Assembly: GCA_031288005.1 (NCBI GenBank)
Contig: JAITSE010000054.1
Span: 1-14,722, forward strand
From: Treponema sp.
GTDB lineage: Bacteria; Spirochaetota; Spirochaetia; Treponematales; Breznakiellaceae
Length of the DNA stretch: 14,722 nt
Direction: 5' to 3'
Below the pieces are notes generated by a model that had not been told where the DNA came from, did no database searches, and saw only the letters and a program-made list of their open reading frames with translations. The position numbers and the translations under genes are program-made. Of this stretch, positions 7,331-14,307 are shown one piece after another. Within the stretch, counting starts at the first letter, position 1. Each line of letters begins with the position of its first letter.

Positions 7331-8497
7331 TTAAAAGCCGCTCTTGCCGGCCAAAACAGCCTTTGCCCGCTCAAAAATCTCCTCTTCCGAAGGAATCACC
7401 CCGCCTGAATGTCCCAAAAGATGAACCTGCTTGAGGGAAGCTTTTGGCTCCGCTTCAAGGAGCGAAAGTTTCACGTCCTCCACAAGCTGGCCCAGGCTCA
7501 TCTCAACAGTGAGGATGGGCTTCCCGCCGGAAGCGATCTTTGCAAGGGCTTTGTATGGAAAGGGCCAAAGGGTGATGGGCCGGAACAGGCCCAGGTTGAC
7601 GCCCTCCTTCGCGGCAAGCTGCCGGGCGCCCAGCGCGGCTCTGGCCGAGGTGCCGTAGGCCGCAATCGTCAGGTCCGGGCCTTCCCCGCTAAACCCGCCA
7701 CCGCCCGTATTGAAACCCAGAGCCTCAAAGCGGAGTTGCTCTTTCTCCACCGTCCTGTAGCGCTCAAAACGGGCCCGCGTCTTAGCTTCAAGATCTTCGG
7801 GAACCAGGTCAAGCGAAGTGATGTGCCGGCTTGCCCGGCTTTCTTCCGCCATGCGGCCCACGGTCCAGTCCCGCGGGGGGAGGCGTCCCGGGTCTAGAGG
7901 CGGAGGCAGGACCACTCCCTCCATCATCTGCCCGATGACGCCGTCGGCCAGAACTATGGCGGGCATCCTGTATCTGTCGGAAAGCTCAAAGGCCAGAAAG
8001 GTGAGGTCCGCGCACTCCTGGACGCTCTTTGGGGCAAGGACTATGCAGCGGTAATCTCCGTGGCCCCCGCCGCGGGTGGACTGAAAGTAATCGCTCTGGG
8101 CCGGGGCGATGGAACCCAGACCGGGACCGCCTCTGACCACGTTTACCACCACCATAGGAATGTCGGCCCCGGCGGCGTAGGAGATTCCCTCCTGCTTGAG
8201 GCTTATTCCGGGACTGGAAGAACTCGTCATGGCCCTGTACCCCGCGGCGGAAGCGCCGTATACCATGTTCACCGCCGCAGTCTCGCTCTCGGCCTGGACA
8301 AAGACCCCTCCCCTATCCATCATGTTCGCGGCCATATAGGCGATAAGCTCATTCTGCGGGGTAATTGGATAGCCGAAATAAGCCCGGCACCCCGCGCGGA
8401 GGGCGGCCTCGGCGATGGCCTCGTTCCCCTTCATAAGGAGCTTTTCTCCCCGGCAGCCGCCGCGGCAAGCGCAGCCGGAATCTTCGCGACCCTTCAT
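7331..8497 (-). CDS. vorB: 2-oxoacid:ferredoxin oxidoreductase alpha subunit VorB
   Basis: With the start at 8497 the product is 388 residues, the alpha subunit of a branched-chain 2-oxoacid (3-methyl-2-oxobutanoate) or 2-oxoglutarate:ferredoxin oxidoreductase. Landmarks are LMKGNEAIAEAA (21-32), FGYPITPQNE (41-50), TSSSSPGISLKQEGISY (91-107), VRGGPGLG (121-128), STRGGGHGDY and the ADGVIGQMMEG segment. These read like the VorB family. The ATG overlaps the ferredoxin stop as ATGA and has a strong AGGAGG seven bases upstream, whereas the same frame extends to 8689 only as antisense-like sequence over the ferredoxin gene. Oddly, this start adds about 20 residues with three cysteines (C9, C11, C15) before the usual family start at Met22 (8434), which has a GGGGAGA about ten bases ahead. 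Confidence 0.92.
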   Translation of the reverse strand: MKGREDSGCACRGGCRGEKLLMKGNEAIAEAALRAGCRAYFGYPITPQNELIAYMAANMMDRGGVFVQAESETAAVNMVYGASAAGYRAMTSSSSPGISLKQEGISYAAGADIPMVVVNVVRGGPGLGSIAPAQSDYFQSTRGGGHGDYRCIVLAPKSVQECADLTFLAFELSDRYRMPAIVLADGVIGQMMEGVVLPPPLDPGRLPPRDWTVGRMAEESRASRHITSLDLVPEDLEAKTRARFERYRTVEKEQLRFEALGFNTGGGGFSGEGPDLTIAAYGTSARAALGARQLAAKEGVNLGLFRPITLWPFPYKALAKIASGGKPILTVEMSLGQLVEDVKLSLLEAEPKASLKQVHLLGHSGGVIPSEEEIFERAKAVLAGKSGF

Positions 8498-8727
8498 CCC
8501 GCGACCTCCTCTTCCAGGTCGAACACCTCGATGCAGACTTCCGGGCATACCGCGAAGCAGTTGCCGCAGCCCGTACACTTCTCTATCTGAAGCGCCGACG
8601 CGGGGAAGCTCCCCTGCATATTGAGATGTTTCTCGACATCCAACACTTTTACCGGGCAAGCGCGGATGCACAAGCCGCAGCCCTTGCACAGCTCCCGGTC
8701 AATCACTACTTTCCCTTTTCTGGCCAT
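8494..8727 (-). CDS. 2-oxoacid:ferredoxin oxidoreductase ferredoxin (delta) subunit, 2x[4Fe-4S]
   Basis: This 77-residue bacterial-type ferredoxin subunit passes electrons from the TPP site to external ferredoxin. It has two clusters: CKGCGLCIRACP (Cys14, 17, 20, 24) and CTGCGNCFAVCP (Cys51, 54, 57, 61). I use ATG at 8727 (MARKGKVV...), preceded by GGGGAGG four bases away and matching the family start. An in-frame ATG at 8757 would add ten residues but lies inside a perfect hairpin (8750-8782) with no good ribosome binding site. It is the first gene of the delta-alpha-beta-gamma-kamA operon and overlaps alpha by ATGA. Confidence 0.92.
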   Translation of the reverse strand: MARKGKVVIDRELCKGCGLCIRACPVKVLDVEKHLNMQGSFPASALQIEKCTGCGNCFAVCPEVCIEVFDLEEEVAG

Positions 8728-8912
8728 GGGGCCTCCCCTGTAATCCGCATGAGACATGGAACCGCAGGTTCCTTAGGTCTCACGGGTTGTTTAGAGTTTC
8801 AGACAAGTGAAACGCTTTTGAGACCCGCGTCCGCGCGTCCCTTGCGGCTTTATTTAAGGTCCGGACTGGTCCGCTTAGGCCTAAGAAACCTGATAATCCC
8901 CGGTCCTGAGTT
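8728..8912 (-). promoter_or_regulatory. structured 5' leader of the oxidoreductase operon, candidate cis-regulatory RNA
   Basis: About 185 nt separate the predicted transcription start (near 8912) from the ferredoxin ATG. Inverted repeats, in transcript order, are: AAGAAAC/GTTTCTT (8916-8910 and 8889-8883); a perfect 12-bp palindrome CTTAGGCCTAAG (8885-8874) that shares bases with the first stem's 3' arm; a nested stem CGGGT/ACCCG (8827-8823 with 8787-8783) enclosing GTTTCA/TGAAAC (8813-8808 with 8801-8796); and a hairpin TGAGAC/GTCTCA (8782-8777 with 8755-8750) enclosing GGAACC-tgc-GGTTCC (8772-8758). I do not match it to a known riboswitch class. No T-tract terminator is visible, so any control would be on translation, mRNA stability or protein binding. 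Confidence 0.5.
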
Positions 8913-8918
8913 TCTTGA

Positions 8919-8947
8919 ATCATAAAATATATTTATCTTAAAACCAA
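8919..8947 (-). promoter_or_regulatory. promoter of the oxidoreductase-kamA operon
   Basis: Minus strand: TTGGTT (8947-8942), 17-bp spacer, TATGAT (8924-8919). The -10 box matches consensus at 5/6 positions, the -35 at 3/6, and the spacing is ideal. The spacer is AT-rich. It lies immediately after the stop of the small upstream ORF (8953). Confidence 0.55.
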
Positions 8948-8952
8948 GACCT

Positions 8953-9072
8953 TTAGCATGAAGCTCTATAGTCTTTTGTGGAAGCCTTATAGTCTTTTGT
9001 CCAGAACTGATGACCCTCTTTCGAGTCATAGAACTGTAGGACGGCCAAAACTTTTTCATCGATTCTGGTCAT
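8953..9072 (-). CDS. hypothetical 39-residue protein ending in a heptad repeat
   Basis: A 39-codon ORF starts at ATG 9072 with GAGG five bases upstream (9081-9078). Its N-terminal part (MTRIDEKVLAVLQFYDSKEG) looks like ordinary protein, with a predicted helix. The C-terminus is two tandem seven-residue units, TKDYKAS and TKDYRAS, followed by Cys and stop, created by an imperfect 21-bp DNA repeat. I do not recognise a family. It could be a real small protein, a truncated remnant or a product of repeat expansion. It follows the two structured elements in the same direction and ends 6 bp before the promoter of the oxidoreductase operon. Confidence 0.42.
   Translation of the reverse strand: MTRIDEKVLAVLQFYDSKEGHQFWTKDYKASTKDYRASC
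8959..9000 (-). repeat. tandem 21-bp direct repeat, two units
   Basis: Units at 8959-8979 and 8980-9000 are identical at 18 of 21 positions; the shared core is TATAGTCTTTTGT on the plus strand. The length keeps the reading frame, so each unit adds seven residues to the 39-residue ORF. Confidence 0.85.
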
Positions 9073-9088
9073 CTGATCCTCTTGCTTT

Positions 9089-9136
9089 GATGAATGGGAC
9101 CTAAGTCTTCGGAGACAACGCTCCACACCATTCATC
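9089..9136. repeat. structured repeat element, copy 1 (three-way junction)
   Basis: Plus strand: a perfect 9-bp closing stem GATGAATGG (9089-9097) / CCATTCATC (9128-9136). Inside lie a mini-hairpin GAC-ctaa-GTC (9098-9107), a TTC linker, a hairpin GGAG-ACAACG-CTCC (9111-9124) and an ACA linker. The interior closely matches copy 2 while the outer stem sequence is unrelated, which points to selection for shape. The active strand is not determined. On the minus strand it would lie in the leader of the 39-residue ORF. Confidence 0.65.
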
Positions 9137-9150
9137 GCAATATATTTTTA

Positions 9151-9195
9151 TAGGCGGGACATACAGTCGCCGGGGACAACACCCCACACCGCCTA
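9151..9195. repeat. structured repeat element, copy 2 (three-way junction)
   Basis: Plus strand: a perfect 7-bp closing stem TAGGCGG (9151-9157) / CCGCCTA (9189-9195). Inside lie GAC-ataca-GTC (9158-9168), a GCC linker, GGGG-ACAACA-CCCC (9172-9185) and an ACA linker. Relative to copy 1 the GGAG/CTCC stem has become GGGG/CCCC by a paired change, and the whole closing stem is replaced yet still paired. Copies are 14 bp apart and lie between the 51-residue and 39-residue genes. Confidence 0.65.
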
Positions 9196-9215
9196 ATTTA
9201 GCCTTACGCTGCTTC

Positions 9216-9371
9216 CTAAGCGTTCTGCTGGTAATAATCCAGTTCATCGTCCCAGTCGTTAATGACTGAAACGTTGGCGCCACTGTCCGCAAGCTCCTCA
9301 GCGGCGCTTTTCCTGTCGTATTGGCCGTTCATGTACCCAATCCTGATGTCCTCAACCGATACCCTGTTCAT
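9216..9371 (-). CDS. hypothetical 51-residue acidic protein
   Basis: The ATG at 9371 has an excellent ribosome binding site, GGAGG six bases upstream, so this is probably a real gene. The product begins MNRVSVEDIRIGYMNGQYDR and continues with an Ala/Glu-rich helix and an acidic C-terminal stretch NDWDDELDYYQQNA. There is no signal or membrane segment. I do not recognise the family. The same frame extends to 9437, but that part is translated hairpin sequence and is rejected. A terminator-like hairpin ends only about 6 bp before the ribosome binding site, so expression may depend on read-through. It is divergent from the XRE-nuclease operon. Confidence 0.6.
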   Translation of the reverse strand: MNRVSVEDIRIGYMNGQYDRKSAAEELADSGANVSVINDWDDELDYYQQNA

Positions 9372-9385
9372 CCTGTACCTCCAAT

Positions 9386-9441
9386 AAAAAAAGCGTTGGT
9401 TGGAACCTCGGCCCTGCCCGGCTCTGGCTCCAATCAACGCT
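9386..9441 (-). terminator. terminator-like hairpin (attenuator candidate) upstream of the 51-residue gene
   Basis: Arms 9441-9429 and 9404-9392 pair over 13 positions with one mismatch on the minus strand (a G-U wobble on the plus strand). The loop is GC-rich and a run of seven T on the minus strand (9392-9386) follows. No minus-strand gene lies upstream to be terminated before the XRE start at 9503. The hairpin therefore sits in the leader of the 51-residue gene, whose Shine-Dalgarno begins just after the T-run. Confidence 0.6.
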
Positions 9442-9483
9442 CTTTCTTTCCCGGGGCAGCGGGTTAAATCTTTGTTTACGGAG

Positions 9484-9499
9484 ATATTGCCGATAATAT
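9484..9499 (+). promoter_or_regulatory. possible -10 box and operator of the XRE operon
   Basis: GATAAT (9492-9497, 5/6 match to TATAAT) ends five bases before the XRE ATG, which predicts a start of transcription at or next to the ATG. It overlaps a dyad ATATT-N6-AATAT (9484-9499), a plausible autoregulatory site for the XRE protein. No good -35 box is visible. Confidence 0.4.
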
Positions 9500-9502
9500 T
9501 CT

Positions 9503-9883
9503 ATGTCCATTTCAAGAGAAGATCTCGTTGAAAGAATAATGGCCGCACTCGATAAAAAGGGACTTAATAGGACTAAACTATATGAGATTGCCCCGTCTGG
9601 TACAATTTCAGCTTGGAAAACTAAAAGGCAAAAACCGAGTGCTTATACCCTCTTTGAGATAGCTAAATTTGTCGGGGAATCTTTGGACTATCTTTTGACT
9701 GGTTCAGACGGTCTTACGGAGACAGAACATAACCTTCTAGATGCATACCGCAATCTAAATGATGTCGGTAAAAAGGCCGCTATAGACGCAGTGAGGGATC
9801 TGTATGCTTCTTTCCCTCAGCCATTAGAACAAGGTTGGAGTCTCATCGTAGACGATAACATAAAGCCAATAACACCAAAATAA
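9503..9883 (+). CDS. XRE-family helix-turn-helix transcriptional regulator
   Basis: This 126-residue protein has an N-terminal Cro/CI-type HTH at about residues 7-65. The pattern is helix, TKLYEIAPSGTISAWKTKRQ recognition region, then PSAYTLFEIAKFVGESLDYLLTG, the classic end of XRE domains. The C-terminal half is helical (TETEHNLLDAYRNLND...), common in phage-repressor-like proteins. No catalytic LexA/CI protease motif is seen. It is followed after 11 bp by the DUF262-HNH gene and probably controls that operon, as controller proteins do for restriction systems; that is inference from context. There is no clear Shine-Dalgarno before the ATG and a -10-like box ends five bases upstream, so the transcript may be leaderless. 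The gene is more AT-rich than its metabolic neighbours, suggesting transfer. Confidence 0.88.
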   Translation: MSISREDLVERIMAALDKKGLNRTKLYEIAPSGTISAWKTKRQKPSAYTLFEIAKFVGESLDYLLTGSDGLTETEHNLLDAYRNLNDVGKKAAIDAVRDLYASFPQPLEQGWSLIVDDNIKPITPK

Positions 9884-9894
9884 GGGGGAATGAT

Positions 9895-11265
9895 ATGTCA
9901 GACGAATACACTATCAATGAACAAGAAGAACTTACCGGGTATGGGGACGTTGCGGAAAAAGGCGATGAACCGGTATTTGACGGACCGGGAAACAGAAAAA
10001 TCGTCTGGAATCCTATGGATTTTTCGGTAGAAACGCTTTACTACAAGAAAAAAGGCGGCGACCTCGACCTTAGCCCCCCATGGCAGCGCAACTATGTCTT
10101 TGACAAGACAAAAGCCAGCCGGCTTATAGAATCCGTGCTACTGGACGTACCTTTGCCAGCGGTATATCTGGCGGAGGAAGCGGACGGAACCCTGAGCGTG
10201 ATAGACGGCCAGCAACGCCTTACCACTTTCTTCGGCTTCATTGATGACCAGTTTCCAGTGGGGAAATCGTATACCGAATTCAAACTGAACGGCTTGGAGA
10301 TACTGACCGAACTGAAAGGCTTGAAGTATGCCGGGCTTGAAAAACCCCTCCAGCGAAAAATCAGAGACACCCCCATTCACGCCATAATTATTAAAAAAGA
10401 GTCTGATGAGGACGTAAGGTTCGATATTTTTGAGCGGCTGAACACCGGTTCCATGAAGTTAAACGAGGACGAAATCAGGAATTCCGTCTACCGCGGCCCC
10501 TATATTGACCTGTTGGACGAACTTGAGGAGGATAAAACCTTCGGAAAGCTGGTCAACAAGCCTAATTTCAAGAACCGTATGCTCTACCGGGGTATGATAC
10601 TGCGGTTCCTTGCCCTTTCCGAGAAAGATTACCGGGACTACCGTCCAAGCATGAAGCAGTTCTGCAACAAAGAACTCAGGGAACGGCGGAATTTATCAAA
10701 AGAAAAAGCTAACGAGTACCGGAAACGGTTCAGAACATGCGTTGACCTCTGTCATTCGGTTTTCGGAGAAAACGCTTTCAGGCGGTTCAGTCCGGGGAAA
10801 GACGAGAGCAACAAGGATGGTTCCTGGGTTGCCAGCCGGATCAACATGGCCTTATTTGATGTTCAGATGTGCTGCTTCGCCAAATACGATCAGAGCCAAT
10901 TCCAGGGGCATTGGAATGAGATTCGGGATCGGATGCTTGACCTCATGTGCAACGATCCCGAATTCGGCGATGCTATCGAAATTCAAACAAGCAGTACCGT
11001 GCGTATGCAGAGTCGGTTCACCAAATGGCTTGGCGTCTTGGACTCTATCGTCTCAAATCCAACATCCCGAAATTTTAGCTACGAGATCAAAAAACAGCTT
11101 TTCGAGAAAGACCCAACCTGCGGAATCTGCCATAACCAGATTCTCGCCATCGAGGATGCCGAAGTGGACCATATAGACCCATATAGCAAAGGCGGACCTA
11201 CGACCATCGAAAACGCCCAGATTGCCCACCGGTACTGCAACCGGCATAAGAGCGATAACACATAA
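9895..11265 (+). CDS. DUF262 and HNH endonuclease domain protein (probable anti-phage nuclease)
   Basis: This 456-residue protein has two recognisable parts. The DUF262 (GmrS/SspE N-terminal-like, ParB-type) domain covers about 43-260, with SPPWQRNYVF (60-69), the nucleotide-binding signature IDGQQRLTT (103-111) and FERLNTGSMKLNEDEIRN (179-196). The C-terminal end is an HNH nuclease: CGIC (Cys409, Cys412), EVDHIDPYSKGG (His426), Asn440, and HRYCNRHK (445-452, Cys448). Known DUF262 proteins such as GmrSD and SspE restrict modified or phosphorothioated phage DNA using NTP, but those carry DUF1524 rather than this zinc-type HNH. I therefore infer defence without naming a system. It has a good ribosome binding site AGGGGGA and lies 11 bp after the XRE gene. 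No methylase or other partner is present, so it may act alone. Confidence 0.88.
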   Translation: MSDEYTINEQEELTGYGDVAEKGDEPVFDGPGNRKIVWNPMDFSVETLYYKKKGGDLDLSPPWQRNYVFDKTKASRLIESVLLDVPLPAVYLAEEADGTLSVIDGQQRLTTFFGFIDDQFPVGKSYTEFKLNGLEILTELKGLKYAGLEKPLQRKIRDTPIHAIIIKKESDEDVRFDIFERLNTGSMKLNEDEIRNSVYRGPYIDLLDELEEDKTFGKLVNKPNFKNRMLYRGMILRFLALSEKDYRDYRPSMKQFCNKELRERRNLSKEKANEYRKRFRTCVDLCHSVFGENAFRRFSPGKDESNKDGSWVASRINMALFDVQMCCFAKYDQSQFQGHWNEIRDRMLDLMCNDPEFGDAIEIQTSSTVRMQSRFTKWLGVLDSIVSNPTSRNFSYEIKKQLFEKDPTCGICHNQILAIEDAEVDHIDPYSKGGPTTIENAQIAHRYCNRHKSDNT

Positions 11266-11326: not shown

Positions 11327-11464
11327 ATAACAATTAAATTTATATTTATATTAAATTTACATTACTATACTATATATGGAATGGTATAGATAGGGTATGG
11401 AAGGGGTATCTATAGGGTATCAATACCCTACTTCTTATAGAAGAAAATCGGGACTGGAACCAGT
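11327..11464. repeat. AT-rich tract, four GGTAT motifs at 11-bp spacing and flanking dyads (iteron-like)
   Basis: An extremely AT-rich stretch (about 11327-11379) leads into GGTAT at 11383, 11394, 11405 and 11416, exactly one helical turn apart, then the inverted copy ATACC (11423-11427), giving GGGTAT-CA-ATACCC. Two more dyads follow: CTTCT-tat-AGAAG (11431-11443) and ACTGG-aa-CCAGT (11453-11464). Same-face spacing suggests cooperative protein binding. The region lies between convergent genes, so it need not be a promoter. It could be an origin, a partition site or a regulator-binding array. Confidence 0.55.
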
Positions 11465-11525: not shown

Positions 11526-11771
11526 TTAAGTAACTGCCGCAGTTCTTGGACGGATCTTCCCCCGGCCTACTAAATCATAGCAAATGGAAAGCCCTCTTTT
11601 TGCCAGGGAAGCTTCCGCCCTTTTGTTTCGTTCTTCCGCAGTCATTCCGGCGGTTTCGTCCTGTATTTTTAACCGTATAGCATGAATCTCCCTGATAGGC
11701 TCCATAGCCGCCATCATTTCCGGGTCATTGGTGATCCGGGGATCATTCAGGTAATCTTGTACTGTCTTCAT
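11526..11771 (-). CDS. small partner of PIN-domain toxin (putative antitoxin)
   Basis: The 81-residue product begins MKTVQDYLNDPRITNDPEMM and continues with REIHAIRLKIQDETAGMTAEER, a pattern I recognise as the small protein that accompanies this PIN family in many bacteria. It is mostly helical and charged, with no evident HTH or ribbon-helix-helix. The start ATGA overlaps the PIN gene stop, so the two are translationally coupled with the toxin gene first, the reverse of most type-II modules. A strong terminator follows. The antitoxin role rests on context and family recollection, not on a visible motif. Confidence 0.7.
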   Translation of the reverse strand: MKTVQDYLNDPRITNDPEMMAAMEPIREIHAIRLKIQDETAGMTAEERNKRAEASLAKRGLSICYDLVGRGKIRPRTAAVT

Positions 11772-12262
11772 AACGCTAATACCTCCACAGGTCTATATAT
11801 CCCGATAGGGTTAAAACCTTCTTGTTTATTGACCCGCCTGACCCGTTCGATTGTCCAGGGCCGGGCTATATGTTCAAAATTAAGGCTCACAGTGAAGTCT
11901 AAGCCGTTGAGCGCCGTAATTGCAATATGTCCGGCATCTGTAGGATAACTTTCAGGAATCGCCTTGGATTGGATATAAAGGGACGCAAGCCTTTTCGATT
12001 CTTCTGTCTCCGGCAGAACCTTGACATTGTAATCCGTAATGAGCCGCCACATATTCTCCCGCTTTTCATGGTTGGTTTCATCATCGATTTCATCAGTTGC
12101 CAGGATAGAAGTATAAGGTTCATACTTCCCAGCTCTAATCAGATCAAAGACCTGGCGAACCTCCGCTTTTAATTCCAGGTATGGCGGGGCCGTCCGCTTT
12201 TCGTAATAAAAGCTGAACATCGTCGTTTCAAGATAGATTTTCGGAACCTCAATACCATCCAT
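11768..12262 (-). CDS. PIN-domain protein (putative type-II toxin ribonuclease)
   Basis: This 164-residue PIN-fold protein opens with PKIYLETTMFSFYY (7-20), where the first acidic residue is Glu12 instead of the usual Asp. TDEIDDE follows (Glu58 as the second acid), then YPTDAGHIAIT (Asp109) and VSLNFEHI (Asn128 at the fourth position). PIN domains cut RNA with Mg ions held by such acids. The sequence, including the GFNPIGIYRPVEV ending, matches a widespread VapC-like group paired with a small downstream protein. It has a good ribosome binding site AAGGAG (five-base spacer) and its own TTGACA promoter. Toxin activity is inferred from the family and pairing. Confidence 0.8.
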   Translation of the reverse strand: MDGIEVPKIYLETTMFSFYYEKRTAPPYLELKAEVRQVFDLIRAGKYEPYTSILATDEIDDETNHEKRENMWRLITDYNVKVLPETEESKRLASLYIQSKAIPESYPTDAGHIAITALNGLDFTVSLNFEHIARPWTIERVRRVNKQEGFNPIGIYRPVEVLAL

Positions 12263-12325: not shown

Positions 12326-12760
12326 TCAAATTGTTTTCCTTGGCCGCCCACGCTGCCCCGGCACCTTGGGCGGCTTTTCCTTCCGGGGCCTTCCGCGGGG
12401 CCGCTTCGGTCCGGCTGCTTCCGGCTGTTCTTTCTTAGGCCGTCCAACCGGAATCTTCGCCTCCCTTTCAAACTGCCGCTCCTGGTCCAAGGTGAAGTAA
12501 TAACTGGCCTCACGCATCTCTACACCATGCTCACAGGCCCATTTCCGTACCTTCTCCGGAGACCAGCCAGTCTTTTTCGCAATGGTTCTTGCGCTACGGG
12601 GTGCGCATTCCATGGTCCGCCGGCTCAGGAACGCGGCTTCCTGGACTTCATCAAAAAAATACCTCCCGGATGTTCGCTTCATACCGTGTTCCCGGGCCCA
12701 ATTACGGACCCTGAAAATAGACCTGCCGGAAATCCGGGCTAGCTCTTCAACGCTCTTCAT
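12326..12760 (-). CDS. DNA-binding protein with duplicated HTH and three AT-hooks
   Basis: This 144-residue basic protein contains two homologous helix-turn-helix units, residues about 3-46 and 55-98. They align as ELARISGRSIFRVRNWAREHG...GRYFF and TIAKKTGWSPEKVRKWACEHG...SYYF, each ending in an aromatic pair like the wing of MerR/excisionase-type domains. A Lys/Arg/Pro/Gly tail carries three AT-hook cores: VGRPKK (105-110), PRGRPRK (121-127) and QRGRPRK (136-142), which bind the minor groove of AT-rich DNA. It is therefore a compact chromatin-like or regulatory DNA binder. It has a GGAGG ribosome binding site and a TTGACG promoter, and sits directly upstream of the PIN pair. Likely targets include the AT-rich intergenic regions of this island; that is inference. 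The family name is unknown to me. Confidence 0.75.
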   Translation of the reverse strand: MKSVEELARISGRSIFRVRNWAREHGMKRTSGRYFFDEVQEAAFLSRRTMECAPRSARTIAKKTGWSPEKVRKWACEHGVEMREASYYFTLDQERQFEREAKIPVGRPKKEQPEAAGPKRPRGRPRKEKPPKVPGQRGRPRKTI

Positions 12761-13166: not shown

Positions 13167-14129
13167 TTATCCGACTTTCCCGAAATTCGAGGCTTTCTCC
13201 TCAAGGATCGAGGCTGTACCCTCAATTACCGAATCGATCTTGGTTCCTATTTCCCGAATGGTTTTTTTCGTGGAGTGCAAATAGTTTTTTGTCGTTTTGA
13301 GGTCCGAGTGATCCAAGAGATCCTGGATATACCGCAGGGAAACGCCGCGATCCTCCAGGACTGAGGCTAGGGAGTACCGGCTGCTATGCGGGACAAGCTG
13401 CCGGCCGTTCAGCTCAATGCCAGCCCGGGCCAGCCATTTTTTAAAACGGCCTTTTATCCAGGAGGATCCCGGGGTTTTCCCATCCTTGAACGCAAAAACA
13501 AAGCCGTGCTGCTCGTTCGCCTGCCAAAGATCCCTGATCGCCTCCTGCAATACCTTATCAAACGGAGCAATCCGTTCCCGTTTGCTTTTCGTAGGCCCCA
13601 AGTTCCGCTTCCGGTATGAGAAATTCTGCCAAGCATGGGACACCGTGATCTTCGGGGTGAACCAATCAAGATCCTCCGGGCGCAGCGCAAAAATCTCCGA
13701 CCGGCGCAGCCCGGCCAGGAACATCGCCGCGCAGATTGCCCGCTCCATTTTGTCCAGCAGTACCCCGGGCTGGAACAGCTTAATCACCTCTTCTTCCGGT
13801 AGCGCGTCCCTTACCGTAAACCTGATGGTCCTTGGAGGCTCTATGTCTTGGAAGGCATTATACCAGCCGGGACGGTTCTTTCCGTACTCCTTGAAAGCCA
13901 TGCGGAGAAACTTCACCAGTTTGTTAAAGGTTTCTGAGCCGGCCATTTTCGGCTTCTCCTCTTTGTTCTTGTACCGACCCTGCAACTCCCGACGCCCCAT
14001 GCGGCTGATGAACTCAAGTGCATCAACCGGCTCTACCTCTACCATCAGCATATTCATAAACGGAGCATCTTTCATGTGGTTTTCATACAGCCCTTTCAGA
14101 CGGTCTACGGATTGGGGCTGTTTTGCCAT
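13167..14129 (-). CDS. tyrosine recombinase/phage-type integrase
   Basis: With ATG at 14129 the protein has 320 residues, a normal size. The N-terminal 1-100 is a SAM-like core-binding domain. The catalytic domain (about 105-290) shows the first Arg in AGLRRSEI (Arg142), a Lys in the beta-hairpin PTKSKRERI (about 181), HSSR (His248, Arg251), LLDH (His274) and the nucleophile Tyr283 in KNYLH. The full R-K-H-R-H-Y set is present, so the enzyme should be active. It probably integrated and excises this island. The frame is open to 14201, but those upstream residues are antisense to the 57-residue gene and are rejected. A C-terminal tail of about 30 residues follows Tyr283. The ribosome binding site is poor (only AGGTC far upstream), which suggests weak expression or an unrecognised start. 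Confidence 0.9.
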   Translation of the reverse strand: MAKQPQSVDRLKGLYENHMKDAPFMNMLMVEVEPVDALEFISRMGRRELQGRYKNKEEKPKMAGSETFNKLVKFLRMAFKEYGKNRPGWYNAFQDIEPPRTIRFTVRDALPEEEVIKLFQPGVLLDKMERAICAAMFLAGLRRSEIFALRPEDLDWFTPKITVSHAWQNFSYRKRNLGPTKSKRERIAPFDKVLQEAIRDLWQANEQHGFVFAFKDGKTPGSSWIKGRFKKWLARAGIELNGRQLVPHSSRYSLASVLEDRGVSLRYIQDLLDHSDLKTTKNYLHSTKKTIREIGTKIDSVIEGTASILEEKASNFGKVG

Positions 14130-14133
14130 AAAA

Positions 14134-14307
14134 ATGAATAAAGAAGACCTGTTAAAATATCTTTTAAAATATAGCCATGCATCGCCTGAACTTGAAAACA
14201 ATCCGGTATACCTAAAAGAAAGGGAAGAATATAAAAATTTTCTTAACGAAGTAGAAAAATTAGAATCAGAAGAAGAATATTTATTAGTGGCAAAAGAGAT
14301 AATGTAA
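14134..14307 (+). CDS. hypothetical 57-residue acidic helical protein
   Basis: A plus-strand ORF begins MNKEDLLKYLLKYSHASPELE and ends in a Glu/Lys-rich amphipathic helix (NFLNEVEKLESEEEYLLVAKEIM). It is strongly AT-rich and uses A/T-ending codons, unlike the recombinase. The longer plus-strand frame reaching back to 13417 is antisense to the recombinase, and only this end looks like protein. Its ATG lies four bases from the divergent recombinase start, so any promoter must lie inside the recombinase gene and no good ribosome binding site is visible. It could be a small antitoxin-like or recombination-directionality protein, or a fragment of a gene cut by the integration. Family unknown. Confidence 0.45.
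   Translation: MNKEDLLKYLLKYSHASPELENNPVYLKEREEYKNFLNEVEKLESEEEYLLVAKEIM

What the first reader, a model, noticed from the sequence alone, without database searches (positions are those of the whole stretch)
9089..9195. Two tandem structured elements with covarying stems: candidate undescribed small RNA or DNA-hairpin family
Seen directly: two neighbouring copies share an interior (GAC loop GTC, 3-nt linker, GGRG-ACAAC-R-CYCC, ACA) that is nearly identical. Their closing stems share only the innermost GG/CC yet are each perfectly self-complementary (9 bp in copy 1, 7 bp in copy 2). The second hairpin also has a paired A-T to G-C change. Covariation between two copies is the usual mark of a selected secondary structure, here a compact three-way junction. 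It does not match hammerhead, twister, pistol, mini-ykkC or integron attC patterns that I can recall. Possible roles are a tandem cis-regulatory RNA for the 39-residue ORF (minus strand), a dispersed structured repeat family, or folded single-stranded DNA substrates for a mobile element.
Basis: partly seen in the sequence, partly recalled or inferred. Interest (0 to 1): 0.72.

Follow-up and report, generated by a model that had tools for sequence, protein, structure and literature searches.

The report
Tandem hairpins in prophage early operon
Two small look-alike folded RNA (or DNA) structures sit between two phage-like genes in a spirochaete, and just upstream lies a wider family of phage leader RNAs in which two stretches match each other like lock and key.

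Summary
In detail: two neighbouring copies (9089-9136, 9151-9195) each close as a three-way junction; none of 3000 shuffles of the gap gave two. They lie in a prophage-like integrative element of a Treponema, between orfA (51 aa) and orfB in the leftward operon (sister element: leader, orfA, the copies, orfB, HU-like, excisionase-like, NinG). One other genome, G069, carries both copies; between the two elements 0 of 60 paired bases changed against 10 of 86 other bases of the gap. No further homologue was found in 195 family and 390 order genomes, viral contigs or Rfam, so it is a narrow pair. Strand and function stay open; I favour a cis-acting intercistronic mRNA element. Following the operon upstream gave the better find: the orfA leader (9382-9468, minus) is a terminator-like hairpin preceded by a small hairpin whose loop is complementary to a six-base stretch in the upper part of the terminator. 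Of fourteen such leaders (window and eight genomes), 13 have a perfect six-base match, in seven codes. No Rfam family matches; it resembles, without being shown to belong to, IsrK/SeqA and P4 CI RNAs.

The parts
9089..9136 (.). copy 1: three-way junction, P1 9 bp, hairpins GAC/GTC and GGAG/CTCC
   Evidence: conserved in G069 (L131 9844-9891)
9151..9195 (.). copy 2: three-way junction, P1 7 bp, hairpins GAC/GTC and GGGG/CCCC
   Evidence: conserved in G069 (L131 9906-9950)
9137..9150 (.). AT-rich spacer between the copies
9216..9371 (-). orfA, 51 aa; 12 database proteins at E<=0.001, one of them the window's own; three-helix model
8953..9072 (-). shortened orfB (39 aa here, 75 aa in G069); similarity to G069 stops at about 9000
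9382..9468 (-). structured leader of orfA: small hairpin, long stem with apical loop, U-run, then ribosome-binding site of orfA (site by eye)
9450..9463 (-). leader hairpin 1, loop CUGCCC
9414..9419 (-). leader apical loop GGGCAG, complementary to hairpin 1 loop
9503..9883 (+). CI-like repressor, divergent from the leader (Pfam just below its cut-off, PHROG repressor families)
9895..11265 (+). GmrSD_N + HNH protein
12326..12760 (-). DNA-binding-like protein with AT-hook match, shared with G069
13167..14201 (-). tyrosine integrase of the element

Best explanation
The flagged pair is a real, selected secondary-structure element in the intercistronic gap orfA-orfB of the leftward (early-type) operon of a Treponema prophage-like integrative element. 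Most likely it acts in cis as part of the minus-strand mRNA: the two junctions fill the gap, copy 1 ending a few bases before the orfB ribosome-binding site (by eye), and would separate orfB translation from orfA, protect or process the mRNA there, or be bound by a regulator. Shown: structure, conservation in one second genome, place in the gene order. Inferred: that these genes form one transcript, that the minus-strand mRNA is the acting molecule, and what it does. The operon is headed by a second structured RNA (9382-9468, minus), a terminator-like hairpin with a stretch that matches the loop of an upstream hairpin; this one belongs to a family of at least 14 leaders, and is the likely on/off switch of the operon, giving a short RNA by termination or orfA-copies-orfB mRNA by read-through (inferred).
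For: Structure and covariation between copies. G069 has both copies at the same place and changes fall outside stems (0/60 v 10/86, p 0.0055; within the elements 0/60 v 3/33, p 0.042). The gap lies between two co-directional genes with database relatives (orfA 12, orfB 6 proteins at E<=0.001). In G069 the same strand continues into HU-like, HTH_17/excisionase-like and NinG genes. Leader: on the six alignable members 99.0% of cells paired, 0 of 500 shuffles, 8 of 33 pairs changed on both sides; 13 of 14 leaders with a perfect six-base match; promoter-like TTGACA-17-TATTGT upstream of it in G069 (where promoter-like sites overall are no more than shuffles give).
Against: The + strand of the tandem pair folds more distinctively as RNA than the minus strand (z -4.86 v -1.79 over 136 nt) and has A/C-rich loops, which points to the opposite strand or to DNA. 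No promoter-like site was found on either strand at 8700-9550 of the window. Pairing of the tandem pair with the leader is no better than shuffles. Only two elements carry the pair, so the conservation test rests on 10 substitutions. No expression data.
Confidence: 0.45

Rival explanations
1. The + strand is the acting one: a small antisense RNA (or an antisense part of a longer transcript) made of the two junctions, pairing with the orfA-orfB mRNA.
For: More distinctive fold on +; A/C-rich loops and junctions.
Against: No promoter-like site at 8700-9550, and the one terminator-like site found there, on + at 8831-8847, lies upstream of the pair; orfA and orfB, on either side, run on minus.
Confidence: 0.2
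2. Put-like antitermination element: the nascent RNA pair binds RNA polymerase and lets it pass later terminators of the operon.
For: Place in a phage-like leftward operon; HK022 put is two stem-loops of about 70 nt, putR about 270 nt downstream of its start (passages of PMC9378689).
Against: The leader terminator lies upstream of the pair, so the pair cannot act on it; terminator-like sites in G069 8000-10400 are not clearly above shuffles (6 on both strands, 4 of them on minus; mean 3.5, sd 2.4); among 7 other genomes with a leader the four-copy model finds no match at E<=0.5, one weak hit at 0.62 in G035.
Confidence: 0.12
3. DNA-level element: hairpins in single-stranded DNA, or repeats bound by a protein, used in excision, replication or packaging of the element.
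For: It lies in a mobile element; both strands fold as DNA (-9.2 to -10.2 kcal/mol).
Against: Integrase is 4 kb away; no relaxase or replication initiator among the window proteins scanned.
Confidence: 0.13
4. A local duplication with chance pairing and no function.
For: Found in two elements only; little divergence between them.
Against: 0 of 3000 shuffles give two junctions; stem differences between the copies are all paired changes; stems unchanged between elements.
Confidence: 0.1

Closest known systems
[quoted passage not shown]
   Same: The leader here is also a prophage leader that would end at a terminator as a short RNA or be read through into a small ORF (IsrK: abstract and one passage of PMC4825925).
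   Different: No Rfam match; the match between two parts of one leader is not in what I read of IsrK; trans action untested.
P4 CI RNA immunity
   Same: Phage early transcription controlled by RNA-RNA pairing and premature termination (passage of PMC4825925).
   Different: CI pairs with separate sites seqA and seqC; here both partners are in one leader with a built-in terminator.
HK022 put RNA; Tn916 canT
   Same: Structured RNA in early transcripts of a phage or mobile element (passages).
   Different: No antitermination shown; different anatomy.
Rfam families
   Same: Small junction or hairpin RNAs in general.
   Different: No family reaches its threshold in the window; the only hit at 9000-9260 with E up to 5 is a snoRNA at 13.5 bits against a cut-off of 40, beside the pair at 9005-9078.

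Membership tests
HK022 put RNA (for the tandem pair) | in an early transcript of a phage, two stem-loop units | tested here: inconclusive
   two units in the orfA-orfB gap; that the gap is transcribed, and on which strand, is not shown
HK022 put RNA (for the tandem pair) | upstream of the terminators it suppresses | tested here: inconclusive
   terminator-like sites in G069 not clearly above shuffles
HK022 put RNA (for the tandem pair) | antitermination through RNA polymerase | not testable with these tools
   needs transcription assay
IsrK/SeqA (for the leader) | prophage leader ending in a terminator before a small ORF | tested here: met
   anatomy only; orfA has relatives
IsrK/SeqA (for the leader) | match to a curated Rfam family (that Rfam holds isrK is recalled) | tested here: not met
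IsrK/SeqA (for the leader) | short form acts in trans | not testable with these tools
   needs RNA work
Any Rfam 15 family incl. small ribozymes (for the pair) | score at or above the family cut-off | tested here: not met
   (0 matches)
Dispersed structured repeat family (for the pair) | many copies in a genome or across genomes | tested here: not met
   2 copies in 1 of 195 genomes; of 390 order genomes G069 plus one weak hit; 8 genomes with laxer filters

The most novel reading that the evidence does not exclude
The prophage leaders form an RNA-coded switch: each leader carries a six-base 'key' in hairpin 1 and its complement in the terminator. The short terminated RNA of a resident prophage pairs in trans with nascent leaders of the same code, so that code identity sets which incoming elements are silenced (or released), with the tandem junctions as a further RNA layer in this one element.
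Probability: 0.15. Interest if true: 0.75.

Novelty: new variant of a known kind. Interest (0 to 1): 0.5.

Why it matters
Phage early operons are a source of new RNA switches, and phages of spirochaetes are (to my knowledge) little studied. A leader family with seven different but internally matching codes gives a direct test of whether this pairing governs read-through and whether it acts between different prophages. The tandem junctions are a small, well-defined structure ready for probing.

Tried and rejected
Exact-pattern scans of viral contigs for the interior: 1 and 40 stretches. The hit of the longer pattern lies in sequence without a closing stem (by eye). A structural descriptor over the window and these 41 loci also fitted stretches in six of them (L002, L003, L012, L027, L034, L035), none at the pattern match and none with the shared junction strands. 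Looser pattern: 13 viral hits, 0 with all four P3 pairs. Leader patterns: 1 viral hit each, neither with the leader around it (by eye). GTDB pattern scan: 0. BLAST of the region: no phage record; one 35-base plasmid match at E 0.8; leader against phages: none.

Weak model hits of the pair: seven other family genomes at E 0.0086-0.095 (sequences), G121 again at 0.0055, G035 at 0.62. Some share part of the motif: G047 and G048 hold GGGGACAACGCCCC, G121 holds AACGCTCCACA. All seven lie inside open reading stretches, the longest per locus being 362 to 727 codons, and the G047/G048 frame reads like a GTPase by eye, so I treat them as chance in coding DNA; the G035 hit was not checked this way.

Other structures: the scan of leader-bearing loci for junctions printed at most three per strand and locus; it listed other junction-like folds there, none with the shared interior by eye. 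orfA and orfB were not found in viral contigs; in 195 family genomes orfA matched G069 alone, orfB G069 and, at 27% identity, G099. The DNA-binding protein gave one viral hit over 37 residues. Models of orfA and orfB matched nothing in the PDB at E<=0.001. Duplex of leader with the tandem pair: 242 of 300 (minus) and 36 of 300 (plus) shuffles as good. The integron attC idea was rejected by recall only, ribozymes by Rfam. Literature searches (listings of 10 to 20 papers) showed no title or abstract that I recognised as describing either element; absence from print is claimed for those listings alone.

Full report
What was claimed and what is there. The window holds two neighbouring copies of a compact three-way junction. 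Shuffling the bases of the 146-nt gap 3000 times gave two such junctions in none and at least one in 35.

Where it lies. The window's korA is most like two MAGs named Treponema (72% and 71%); that these come from termite guts is my recall, not from a call. No whole genome is held for the window. From about 9000 to the integrase (13167-14201) it is a prophage-like integrative element: CI-like repressor, GmrSD/HNH protein, DNA-binding-like protein, integrase. There the minus strand reads leader, orfA, the two copies, orfB, HU-like, HTH_17/excisionase-like, NinG. In the window similarity stops near 9000, inside orfB, so the 39-residue ORF is a shortened orfB. orfA and orfB have database relatives: 12 proteins (one the window's own) and 6 proteins at E<=0.001.

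How widely the pair occurs. A covariance model of the two copies found G069 (both copies, E 1.8e-15 and 4.6e-14) among 195 genomes of the family; seven more genomes gave E 0.0086-0.095. These seven share at most parts of the motif and lie in long open reading stretches, so I take them as chance. A four-copy model found G069 and one of those seven (G121, 0.0055) among 390 genomes of the order and, with laxer filters, G069 and one hit at 0.62 among 8 genomes. These genome sets overlap, and searches of more than 40 genomes use stricter filters. Viral contigs, phage and plasmid records and Rfam gave nothing convincing. It is a narrow feature of one element type as far as these searches reach; 11 further orfA proteins show that more such elements exist whose DNA I could not read.

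Is it under selection? Between window and G069, 28 ungapped differences lie at 9000-9387. None of the 60 paired positions changed; 10 of the 86 other positions of the gap did (Fisher p 0.0055), and 3 of 33 unpaired positions inside the elements (p 0.042). The gap limits in that script are off by up to two bases from the codon limits, without effect on the numbers of changes. The test rests on few changes.

Which strand and what for. As RNA the + strand is the more distinctive (136 nt: z -4.86 against -1.79); as DNA both strands are alike. orfA and orfB run on the minus strand, and copy 1 ends just before the orfB ribosome-binding site (by eye). I prefer a cis role in the minus-strand mRNA, with an antisense RNA as main rival. 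Nothing tested here shows a function.

The neighbouring leader. Aligning the two elements showed a second structure upstream of orfA with paired changes. It folds as a small hairpin, then a long stem that ends in a U-run just before the orfA ribosome-binding site (z -4.93 and -4.53). DNA search found it in G053 and G108 too. A model from these four matched 7 of 195 family genomes at E<=0.001, three of them used in the model, and 5 of 390 of the order, all five among those seven. Some matches are the opposite strand of a member, because the hairpin is nearly symmetrical.

The six-base match. In the window the hairpin loop CUGCCC is complementary to the apical loop GGGCAG. The model did not include this pairing. 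In one search, 12 of 13 leaders have a perfect complement of six or more bases downstream of hairpin 1; the exception, G108, has one mismatch. A fourteenth (L181, G053) was read by eye and also matches. Of the 14, nine are model hits not used to build the model, and all nine match (eight by script, one by eye); two of the nine are near-identical neighbours (G035). G099 was found through a weak protein hit and a descriptor that itself asks for complementarity, so it is not independent. There are seven codes: CUGCCC, CGGCAC, CGUCCC, CUGGCA, CUGGCC, UGUCGG, CCGACA. Chance of a six-base complement in a shuffled remainder is 1.1-8% per member. Across nine RNAs a loop finds its complement only in its own RNA or in one that shares the code or its partner. 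Against: when only hairpin loops of the minimum-energy folds are compared (two bases added on each side), 8 of 11 leaders show the match; in G187b the partner is not in a predicted hairpin loop, in G199 the predicted fold lacks hairpin 1, and G108 has the mismatch. So loop-loop contact is well supported for most members, and for the rest the match is shown but not that both sides are loops. On six alignable leaders 99.0% of 195 cells pair, 0 of 500 shuffles reach this, and 8 of 33 pairs changed on both sides, 2 of them among the six pairs of this match. The model keeps some preference for the training loops, which favours G/C-rich codes.

Setting of the leaders. For 9 of 14 a regulator-like ORF lies upstream on the opposite strand: the window's has PHROG support, G187b's a Pfam match below the cut-off, the other seven are by eye (the listing was cut); two leaders start near a contig end and three are unclear. 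Downstream genes include RusA, ATP-dependent ligase, GpA terminase and SSB in different loci. In G069 a promoter-like site ends 28 bases upstream of the leader (promoter-like sites overall 3 against a shuffle mean of 3.2). So the leader probably heads phage early-type operons.

How the leader may work. With stem lengths as folded, I estimate that the hairpin 1 loop cannot reach the apical loop once the whole terminator stem has closed; that is inference from helix geometry, not computed. The pairing would then either form first and delay the terminator, or form between two RNA molecules. The closest described systems are IsrK, whose transcript ends at a terminator or reads through (abstract), and P4 CI (passage).

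Verdict. Flagged pair: real, narrow, function open. Leader family: real, broader, without an Rfam 15 match. Together a new variant of a known kind, phage early-operon regulatory RNA.

Noticed in passing
window 9382-9468 (minus); L131 10137-10222; L146; L147; L159-L163; L133; L154; L181: Leader RNA family with terminator-like stem and a six-base match between hairpin 1 and the terminator, seven codes; no Rfam match.
   Followed up: yes
window 8960-9000: Two 21-base tandem repeats right at the point where similarity to the G069 element stops.
   Followed up: no
window about 9000: The element is cut inside orfB; no counterparts of the HU-like, excisionase-like and NinG genes of the G069 element align to the window.
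   Followed up: partly
L131 15476-15549: tRNA gene next to the integrase of the G069 element, a possible integration site; no tRNA in the window.
   Followed up: no
window 11526-12262 (minus): Two overlapping small ORFs (81 and 164 aa) without Pfam or PHROG match, in a stretch that does not align to G069; possibly a toxin-antitoxin pair by eye.
   Followed up: no
L146 and L159-L162, minus strand: Repeated small HTH-like proteins with GRPxK (AT-hook-like) tails, by eye, in leader-bearing regions, several divergent from a leader.
   Followed up: partly
window 11375-11420: 22-base tandem repeat, 2.1 copies, in an AT-rich gap.
   Followed up: no
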